Below, one piece after another: positions 26,860 through 32,650 of a stretch of 64,000 bases of DNA (position 1 is its first letter; each line of letters starts with the position of its first letter). The DNA is from Bacillota bacterium (GTDB taxonomy: Bacteria; Bacillota; Clostridia; Oscillospirales; CAG-382). The stretch covers positions 1-64,000 of the forward strand of contig JAKPGJ010000036.1 of the NCBI GenBank assembly GCA_029550965.1. The letters are read 5' to 3'. The notes below the pieces were generated by a model that saw only the letters and a program-made list of their open reading frames with translations, made no database searches and was not told where the DNA came from. Position numbers and translations under genes: made by a program.

Positions 26860-26985
26860 TCTTACCTTATACCTCTTACCTCTTACTTCTTATCTCTTAC
26901 CTCTTACCTCTTACTTCTTACTTCTTATCTCTTACCTCTTACTTCTTATCTCTTACCTCTTACTTCTTACTTCTTATCTCTTACC
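26860..26985 (-). repeat. Heptamer tandem repeat array (TCTTACC/TCTTACT/TCTTATC, 18 copies)
   Basis: Read directly in 7-bp register; reverse complement of the 18578 array units. Confidence 0.95.
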
Positions 26986-27042
26986 TATTTCTTCTACTTT
27001 ATATCCATTTTTATATTCTGTCAATAAAAAACATAAAAACCG

Positions 27043-31379: not shown

Positions 31380-31408
31380 TTGACAAATAAGTTTATCTAT
31401 GCTAACAT
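31380..31408 (+). promoter_or_regulatory. Promoter of aro/phe operon leader
   Basis: TTGACA-17 bp-TAACAT with TGC extended -10. Confidence 0.85.
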
Positions 31409-31442
31409 AATCAAAAACATCAAAAGGATAGGTTATTCTGCG

Positions 31443-31541
31443 ATGATAGCTGTACTTTTTGCTGCAATATTTTTTTACTTTTATTTTTTCTCGCATGAGA
31501 ACAAAATAAAAGTGATTTCGCTCGCAGCAAAATCGGTATAA
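31443..31541 (+). CDS. Putative Phe/Tyr attenuator leader peptide MIAVLFAAIFFYFYFFSHENKIKVISLAAKSV
   Basis: 32 codons with seven consecutive Phe/Tyr codons, RBS-like AGGATAGG, between promoter and terminator ahead of aroF. Confidence 0.8.
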   Translation: MIAVLFAAIFFYFYFFSHENKIKVISLAAKSV

Positions 31542-31561
31542 CCGATCGAATTATAGAAATT

Positions 31562-31600
31562 AGAGGGTTCTGCGGTGATATCACCAGTAGAACCCTTTTG
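31562..31600 (+). terminator. Attenuator terminator ahead of aroF
   Basis: AGAGGGTTCT-gc-GGTGATATCACC-agt-AGAACCCTTTTG; long stem plus T-tract, inside operon leader. Confidence 0.85.
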
Positions 31601-31645
31601 TTATCATTACAAACCCGATTGAATTTTATCTGAAAGGATTTGCTT

Positions 31646-32650
31646 ATGATCGTCGTACTGAAGAACAGCTGTGACCCGGAAAAAGTGGAGAATCTGAAAA
31701 ATTGGCTCGAGAGCCAGCATATAAAAGTGCACGTGTTTAAAGGCGAGTTTCAAACCGTGTTCGGGCTCATCGGCGACACCTCGCACATCGACATCGGCCT
31801 TTTGGAAGGGCTGGACGTGGTCAAGAGCGTAAAGCGCATCAGCGAGCCGTATAAAAACGCAAACCGCCAGTTCCACCCGGAGGATACGGTTATCACCGCC
31901 GCCGGCGTCGATATCGGCGGTAAGAACTTCCGGTTCATCGCCGGTCCCTGCTCGGTCGAATCAGAGGAACAGATTATCGACATCGCCGAAAAGGTCAAAG
32001 CCGCGGGCGCGTCGTTTCTCCGCGGCGGCGCTTTCAAGCCGCGCACTTCCCCGTACGACTTTCAGGGGCTGCAGGAAAAAGGCATTTCGCTTCTGCTGAA
32101 AGCGAAGGAAAGAACCGGGCTTCCCATTGTGACCGAGATTATGAGCGCAAACCACCTTCCGCTCTTCGAAAACGTCGATATTATTCAGGTCGGCGCACGG
32201 AATATGCAGAACTTTGAGCTTTTAAAAGAGCTGGGCAGGACAAAAAAGACCATCCTTTTAAAGAGAGGGCTTGCGAACACCATCAAAGAACTGCTGATGA
32301 GCGCGGAATACATCATGGCGGGCGGAAACGAGAACATCATCCTTTGCGAAAGAGGCATCCGCACGTTTGAGAATCAAACCAGAAACACGCTGGACATTTC
32401 GGCGGTTCCGGTGCTGAAAGAACTGTCGCACCTGCCGGTAATCGTCGATCCGAGCCACGCTTCCGGAATTTCCCGGTATGTCAAGCCTTTGGCGCTTGCC
32501 GCGGCCGCCGCGGGCGCGCACGGCGTGATGATCGAGGTGCATAACGACCCGCCGCGCGCCTTGTGCGACGGCGCGCAGTCGGTAACGCCGGAACAGTTTT
32601 TGGATATCAAAGCGTCGGTCGATAAAGTTTTGGCCGCGCTGAAGGAGTAG
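31646..32650 (+). CDS. aroF: 3-deoxy-7-phosphoheptulonate (DAHP) synthase, AroF type I-beta
   Basis: FRFIAGPCSVESEEQI, FLRGGAFKPRTSPYDFQGL, VDPSHASG. Confidence 0.95.
   Translation: MIVVLKNSCDPEKVENLKNWLESQHIKVHVFKGEFQTVFGLIGDTSHIDIGLLEGLDVVKSVKRISEPYKNANRQFHPEDTVITAAGVDIGGKNFRFIAGPCSVESEEQIIDIAEKVKAAGASFLRGGAFKPRTSPYDFQGLQEKGISLLLKAKERTGLPIVTEIMSANHLPLFENVDIIQVGARNMQNFELLKELGRTKKTILLKRGLANTIKELLMSAEYIMAGGNENIILCERGIRTFENQTRNTLDISAVPVLKELSHLPVIVDPSHASGISRYVKPLALAAAAAGAHGVMIEVHNDPPRALCDGAQSVTPEQFLDIKASVDKVLAALKE

What the first reader, a model, noticed from the sequence alone, without database searches (positions are those of the whole stretch)
31380..31645. Classical Phe/Tyr leader-peptide attenuator controlling the aro/phe operon
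Seen directly: promoter TTGACA-17-TAACAT (31380-31408), then a 32-codon ORF (31443-31541) MIAVLFAAIFFYFYFFSHENKIKVISLAAKSV with seven consecutive Phe/Tyr codons, then a strong intrinsic terminator (31562-31600), then RBS and ATG of aroF (31646). A candidate antiterminator pairing exists: CGCAG (31523-31527), just downstream of the Phe/Tyr run, with CTGCG (31570-31574) in the terminator 5' arm. The E. coli pheA leader (Phe-rich) is the established analogue. Firmicutes usually use T-boxes for this purpose, so a ribosome-mediated attenuator here would be unusual. The ORF is below the supplied ORF cut-off.
Basis: partly seen in the sequence, partly recalled or inferred. Interest (0 to 1): 0.88.

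Follow-up and report, generated by a model that had tools for sequence, protein, structure and literature searches.

The report
Phe/Tyr leader-peptide attenuator before aroF
A short gene packed with phenylalanine and tyrosine codons, followed by a transcription stop signal, very probably lets this Clostridia bacterium switch on its aromatic amino-acid genes only when those amino acids run short; the same device sits before the same gene in well over a hundred relatives, and its Phe:Tyr mix follows which of the two amino acids the downstream genes make.

Summary
The window has a promoter, a 32-codon leader ORF with seven consecutive Phe/Tyr codons, and an intrinsic terminator, all ahead of aroF-aroB-aroA-aroC-pheA-aroE/K. 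Folding with the ribosome at different positions gives the classical switch: segments 1:2 pair without a ribosome, 2:3 (antiterminator) when it stalls in the run, 3:4 (terminator) when it reaches the stop codon. Among 228 distinct aroF loci, 146 carry a Phe/Tyr-rich leader (null about 1%), and 136 of these also have a terminator. Own antiterminator partners pair far better than swapped ones (z -17.7). No T-box lies in the leader, although the genome has T-boxes elsewhere. It is 0.60 with tyrA only, 0.44 with tyrA+pheA and 0.25 with pheA only; PGLS gives tyrA p=3e-6 and pheA p=4e-4. In this genome a second aroF-tyrA operon has a YYYY..YYY leader. The mechanism is textbook (E. coli pheL; multi-residue leaders such as ilvL), so this is a new member of a known kind. 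It is widespread in Clostridia and I found no earlier description of it. Nothing has been tested experimentally.

The parts
31380..31408 (+). sigma-70-type promoter TTGACA-17-TAACAT with extended TG
   Evidence: similar TTGACA-type promoters at the same place in the two same-genus relatives
31424..31432 (+). ribosome-binding site of the leader (AAGGATAGG)
   Evidence: SD-like motif before 114 of 146 leaders against 51 in shuffled controls
31443..31541 (+). leader peptide ORF MIAVLFAAIFFYFYFFSHENKIKVISLAAKSV
   Evidence: comparable leaders in 146 of 228 aroF loci
31470..31490 (+). sensor: seven consecutive Phe/Tyr codons FFYFYFF
   Evidence: present as YFYFYFFF and YFSFYFFF in the genus
31458..31492 (+). 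segment 1: TTTGCTGC plus the F/Y codons themselves, 5' arms of the 1:2 (protector/pause) hairpin
   Evidence: pairs with 31497-31531; own against swapped z -18.4 over 146 loci
31503..31531 (+). segment 2: pairs with segment 1, or (31514-31527) with segment 3 as antiterminator
31563..31582 (+). segment 3: 5' arm and loop of the terminator; 31570-31582 also pair with segment 2
   Evidence: own against swapped z -17.7 over 136 loci
31563..31602 (+). intrinsic terminator (segments 3:4, stem-loop 31563-31597, then TTTTGTT)
   Evidence: about -23 kcal/mol; compensatory changes in the stem across relatives
31633..31638 (+). ribosome-binding site of aroF (AAAGGA)
   Evidence: sequence
31646..32650 (+). 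aroF, DAHP synthase (ferredoxin-like domain plus DAHP_synth_1)
   Evidence: Pfam PF18152, PF00793
32656..33726 (+). aroB, 3-dehydroquinate synthase
   Evidence: PF01761/PF24621
33723..34982 (+). aroA, EPSP synthase
   Evidence: PF00275
34966..36069 (+). aroC, chorismate synthase (start codon not settled)
   Evidence: PF01264
36087..37250 (+). pheA, chorismate mutase-prephenate dehydratase
   Evidence: PF01817+PF00800
37272..38492 (+). aroE-aroK fusion (shikimate dehydrogenase-shikimate kinase)
   Evidence: PF08501+PF01202

Best explanation
A ribosome-mediated transcription attenuator that senses charged tRNA-Phe and tRNA-Tyr. When both are plentiful, the ribosome runs through the FFYFYFF codons to the stop codon at 31539 and covers segment 2; segments 3:4 then form the terminator and RNA polymerase stops before aroF. 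When Phe-tRNA or Tyr-tRNA is short, the ribosome stalls in the run and occludes segment 1. Segment 2 is then free to pair with segment 3 before segment 4 is made, and the six-gene shikimate-to-prephenate-dehydratase operon is transcribed. With no ribosome, 1:2 forms and the default is termination. Shown by sequence: anatomy, alternative pairings, conservation, composition matched to operon. Inferred: coupling of translation to transcription, charged tRNA as the ligand, and the size of the effect.
For: Anatomy exact. Ribosome-position folding gives 1:2, 2:3 and 3:4 in the expected states, for stalls at each of the four A-site positions modelled across the run. Leaders in 146 of 228 distinct aroF loci, 136 of them with a terminator; shuffle null 0.9%. 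Among single residues tested in 100 loci, Tyr and Phe stand out (Y 41 against 1, F 48 against 7). Antiterminator own -15.06 against swapped -11.13 kcal/mol, z -17.7; segment 1:2 own -22.19 against -16.76, z -18.4. Compensatory changes in 13 of 20 consensus pairs. Leader Tyr share follows tyrA and pheA content after correction on the aroF tree, and in all six genomes (four genera) with both a pheA-type and a tyrA-type operon. No T-box or other known RNA in the leader.
Against: No expression data. 82 of 228 aroF loci lack the leader, including most members of one genus of the same family (L009-L015), so the device is often lost. Column-wise covariation of the antiterminator alone is modest (75% of cells paired against 32-54% when slid, but 20 of 500 shuffles reach it). 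Thermodynamically the terminator beats the antiterminator once segment 4 exists (-32.9 kcal/mol with the terminator against -14.3 with the 3' arm barred), so the switch must be kinetic, as in other attenuators. The U tract is short (TTTTGTT).
Confidence: 0.93

Rival explanations
1. A T-box riboswitch (tRNA-binding leader) or another aptamer controls the operon, and the F/Y ORF is incidental.
For: T-boxes are the usual Firmicutes device and five T-box hits exist in this genome, before asnB-like, trpB2-like and Trp-transporter-like genes among others.
Against: No Rfam match at gathering cut-off anywhere in the window; only chance-level hits in the leader, none a T-box; no credible T-box antiterminator motif upstream of the 102 aroF loci scanned (two poor partial matches). 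A T-box would not explain 146 in-frame F/Y leaders.
Confidence: 0.02
2. The F/Y ORF encodes a functional small membrane or regulatory peptide, and the terminator is that gene's own terminator.
For: The peptide is hydrophobic, has an RBS and is conserved in its F/Y run.
Against: Only the F/Y run is conserved; N- and C-termini, length (14-42 residues) and the spacer residues drift freely. The RNA pairings extend over coding and non-coding parts alike and change in step. Phe:Tyr ratio tracks the operon, which a membrane peptide has no reason to do.
Confidence: 0.02
3. The U-rich F/Y tract is only the 5' arm of an RNA hairpin (for a protein or transcription pausing), not a codon sensor.
For: The F/Y codons do pair with an A-rich segment, including a compensatory CG to UA change at a Tyr third position (columns 62/92).
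Against: An in-frame F/Y ORF recurs across 146 loci against about 1% by chance; SD-like motifs before 114 of 146 against 51 in controls; F and Y codons differ only by U or A at position 2, with the same GC content, yet their ratio follows tyrA and pheA presence.
Confidence: 0.02
4. A TnaC-like arrest: free Phe or Tyr binds the ribosome-nascent-chain complex, rather than uncharged tRNA stalling the ribosome.
For: Sequence alone cannot tell the ligand; no tool result favours this.
Against: Known free-amino-acid arrest peptides need specific spaced residues, not long runs of the sensed residue (general knowledge), and here the spacer residues are not conserved.
Confidence: 0.01

Closest known systems
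E. coli pheA (pheL) leader attenuator
   Same: Leader ORF rich in the end product's codons, three alternative hairpins, terminator before the biosynthetic genes (recalled from general knowledge).
   Different: Different phylum, different downstream genes (whole shikimate operon starting with aroF), Phe and Tyr codons mixed, codon run itself part of the 1:2 stem.
uORFC-13-1 motif, Acholeplasma aroF (PMC8632094)
   Same: Same gene (aroF), uORF with a Phe-coding U run, next to an intrinsic terminator; predicted only.
   Different: 24 sequences confined to Acholeplasma and environmental DNA, at least one Phe codon, no Tyr sensing or operon-tracking described; relatedness not tested here.
Firmicutes His leader before hisZ/hisS (PMC2965389) and S. 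aureus Leu leader before ilvD (PMC5794164)
   Same: Show that codon-run leader attenuators exist in Firmicutes beside T-boxes.
   Different: Other amino acids, genes and orders.
E. coli ilvL (ilvGMEDA) multi-residue leader
   Same: One leader holding codons for several end products of the operon (general knowledge).
   Different: Branched-chain amino acids; no published link between residue ratio and gene content seen here.

Membership tests
Ribosome-mediated (leader-peptide) transcription attenuator | Short translated ORF enriched in codons for the operon's end product | tested here: met
   FFYFYFF; 146 of 228 loci against about 1% null; RBS enrichment. Actual translation not tested.
Ribosome-mediated (leader-peptide) transcription attenuator | Intrinsic terminator between the leader stop codon and the first gene | tested here: met
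   31563-31602; found after the F/Y run in 136 of 146 leaders
Ribosome-mediated (leader-peptide) transcription attenuator | Mutually exclusive antiterminator freed by a ribosome stalled in the codon run | tested here: met
   Folding with the ribosome at four A-site positions; own against swapped z -17.7; column-wise covariation only modest
Ribosome-mediated (leader-peptide) transcription attenuator | Readthrough rises on starvation for the coded amino acid | not testable with these tools
   Needs a reporter, Term-seq or RT-qPCR
T-box riboswitch (RF00230) | Match to the T-box covariance model or conserved antiterminator bulge in the leader | tested here: not met
uORFC-13-1 (Acholeplasma aroF uORF motif) | Shared consensus sequence and structure | not tested
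   The published alignment was not at hand; only the text description was read (PMC8632094)

The most novel reading that the evidence does not exclude
Clostridia use a widespread two-input leader-peptide sensor in which the Phe:Tyr codon ratio is tuned by evolution to the operon's products. When the pathway is split after duplication of aroF, the two leaders specialise: the pheA copy becomes Phe-rich or Phe-only (MNARFFNGFFDFSFF...), and the tyrA copy becomes Tyr-rich (YYYYGGRYYY). To my knowledge these would be the first Tyr-specific leader-peptide attenuators.
Probability: 0.75. Interest if true: 0.68.

Novelty: new member of a known kind. Interest (0 to 1): 0.58.

Why it matters
Control of aromatic amino-acid synthesis in Firmicutes is usually credited to T-boxes. 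Here a classical ribosome-mediated attenuator appears to be a standard device before aroF across many Clostridia families, and it has no match in Rfam. Because the codon mix follows the operon's genes, with several aroF duplications as natural experiments, it gives a testable case of how a multi-input codon sensor is tuned and split, and a way to predict which amino acid an aroF isozyme serves.

Tried and rejected
Rfam at gathering cut-off and permissive E-values gave only chance-level hits. A T-box antiterminator scan upstream of 102 aroF loci gave two poor partial matches. The first operon classification, by ORF chaining, mis-called some operons with long antisense ORFs; it was replaced by tblastn-based calling. 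Column-wise covariation of the antiterminator on one 18-row alignment was only modest, because the register shifts between loci; the own-against-swapped test was used instead. One search read some loci on the wrong strand; corrected. Terminator-like hairpins before aroF without an F/Y run: L046 (probably the upstream gene's own terminator), L051, L077, L107 (short contig end); L088 and L094 carry weaker F/Y runs below the threshold, and L019 a W/Y run.

Full report
WHAT IS THERE. An extended -10 promoter (31380-31408) precedes an SD-like AAGGATAGG and a 32-codon ORF (31443-31541) whose codons 10-16 are TTT TTT TAC TTT TAT TTT TTC. A strong stem-loop with a short U tract follows (31563-31602), then the RBS and ATG of aroF. 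The downstream operon is aroF, aroB, aroA, aroC, pheA (chorismate mutase-prephenate dehydratase) and an aroE-aroK fusion (Pfam). tyrA is absent from it. The leader RNA folds 7.5 SD better than shuffles.

SWITCH ANATOMY. Without a ribosome, TTTGCTGC (31458-31465) pairs with GCAGCAAA (31524-31531), and the F/Y codons themselves (31475-31487) pair with 31503-31515; the terminator can form. With the ribosome's A site placed at 31473, 31479, 31485 or 31491, the free RNA forms 31514-31527 with 31570-31582, an antiterminator that uses the terminator's 5' arm. With the ribosome at the stop codon, only the terminator remains. Once the full terminator has been made it is the more stable structure, so the choice must be kinetic, as in known attenuators (inference).

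IS IT CONSERVED? Both same-genus relatives keep the run, the pairings and the terminator. In 100 first-pass aroF loci from the family and from named Clostridia genomes, 70 have an ATG/GTG ORF with at least 6 F/Y in 10 residues, against 0.9% of dinucleotide shuffles; of the single residues, Tyr and Phe are the ones strongly over-represented. With order-wide genomes and paralogues added, 146 of 228 distinct loci have the leader. 136 of these have a terminator after it, and SD-like motifs precede 114 of 146 leaders against 51 in shuffled controls. Named carriers include Sporobacter termitidis, Angelakisella massiliensis, Emergencia, Aminicella lysinilytica, Anaerotignum neopropionicum and one MAG labelled Treponemataceae (MAG labels not verified).

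ARE THE PAIRINGS REAL? Segment 2 pairs with its own terminator arm at -15.06 kcal/mol on average, against -11.13 with arms from other loci (permutation z -17.7). Segment 1 with segment 2: -22.19 against -16.76 (z -18.4). Against shuffled segment 2 the mean z values are -2.1 (antiterminator) and -2.3 (1:2) over 63 loci. On an 18-sequence alignment, 13 of 20 consensus pairs show two-sided changes, including a Tyr third-position C-to-U change matched by G-to-A opposite it. Column-wise support for the antiterminator alone is modest, because the register moves between loci.

WHAT DOES IT SENSE? Phe and Tyr codons are mixed, and the mix follows the operon. The mean Tyr share Y/(F+Y) is 0.60 where tyrA but not pheA is downstream (n=9), 0.44 where both are (n=85), and 0.25 where pheA but not tyrA is (n=23). 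In a phylogenetic regression on the aroF tree (n=117, lambda 0.69), tyrA adds 0.165 (p=3e-6) and pheA subtracts 0.159 (p=4e-4). The result holds when only the 10-residue core is counted (the tyrA-only class becomes too small at the strictest threshold). F and Y codons have the same GC content, so base composition does not explain it. Six genomes from four genera carry both kinds of operon, and in each the tyrA-linked leader is richer in Tyr. In the window's own genome the second aroF, followed by tyrA, has MFTANKKGYYYYGGRYYYAVFSS.... One genus has an aroF-pheA operon whose leader has seven Phe and no Tyr.

ALTERNATIVES. A T-box was looked for and not found, although the same genome has T-box hits elsewhere, before genes that look like asnB, trpB2 and a Trp-type transporter (gene names from reading the proteins, not tested). 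The genome has no hit to the TrpE family PF00425, which fits an operon that answers only to Phe and Tyr. A functional small peptide or a mere structural stem does not explain the recurring reading frame or the operon-matched composition.

WHAT IS KNOWN. Codon-run leaders are textbook in Proteobacteria (pheL; ilvL for several residues; general knowledge). In Firmicutes they have been reported for His (PMC2965389) and Leu (PMC5794164), and a Phe uORF before aroF was predicted in Acholeplasma (PMC8632094). In the open-access library searched I found nothing on Phe/Tyr leaders in Clostridia or on tyrosine-codon leaders. Subscription papers were not searchable, including a 2010 comparative survey of attenuation (Lopatovskaya et al., cited in PMC4833913) that could hold some of these.

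VERDICT. A real ribosome-mediated Phe/Tyr attenuator by the sequence tests available here, mechanistically ordinary, taxonomically widespread, with a new and quantitative link between leader composition and operon content. Expression evidence is still missing.

Noticed in passing
G000:C33:59731-60732 (L006/L213, outside the window): Second aroF followed by tyrA with a Tyr-rich leader (YYYYGGRYYY) and terminator; followed up because it bears on the finding.
   Followed up: yes
G000 whole genome: No hit to Chorismate_bind (PF00425), so no TrpE/PabB/MenF-type protein found in a 97%-complete genome: probably a Trp auxotroph, while T-box hits sit before trpB2-like and Trp-transporter-like genes.
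   Followed up: partly
L051 (-125 from aroF), L077 (-185): Terminator-like hairpins before aroF without any F/Y run; unexplained exceptions.
   Followed up: no
L019 (upstream of aroF-tyrA, family member G022): Leader-like ORF with WYYW (VKHIGSRTNWYYWCGFTVFPR), possibly a Trp/Tyr sensor.
   Followed up: no
window 26860-27040: Simple tandem repeat (reads as repeated LLPLTSY/LLLISY in one frame) between a galM-like and a dinB-like gene.
   Followed up: no
L193 (G204:C21): Two tandem aroF genes, each with its own F/Y leader (F5Y6 then F6Y2).
   Followed up: partly
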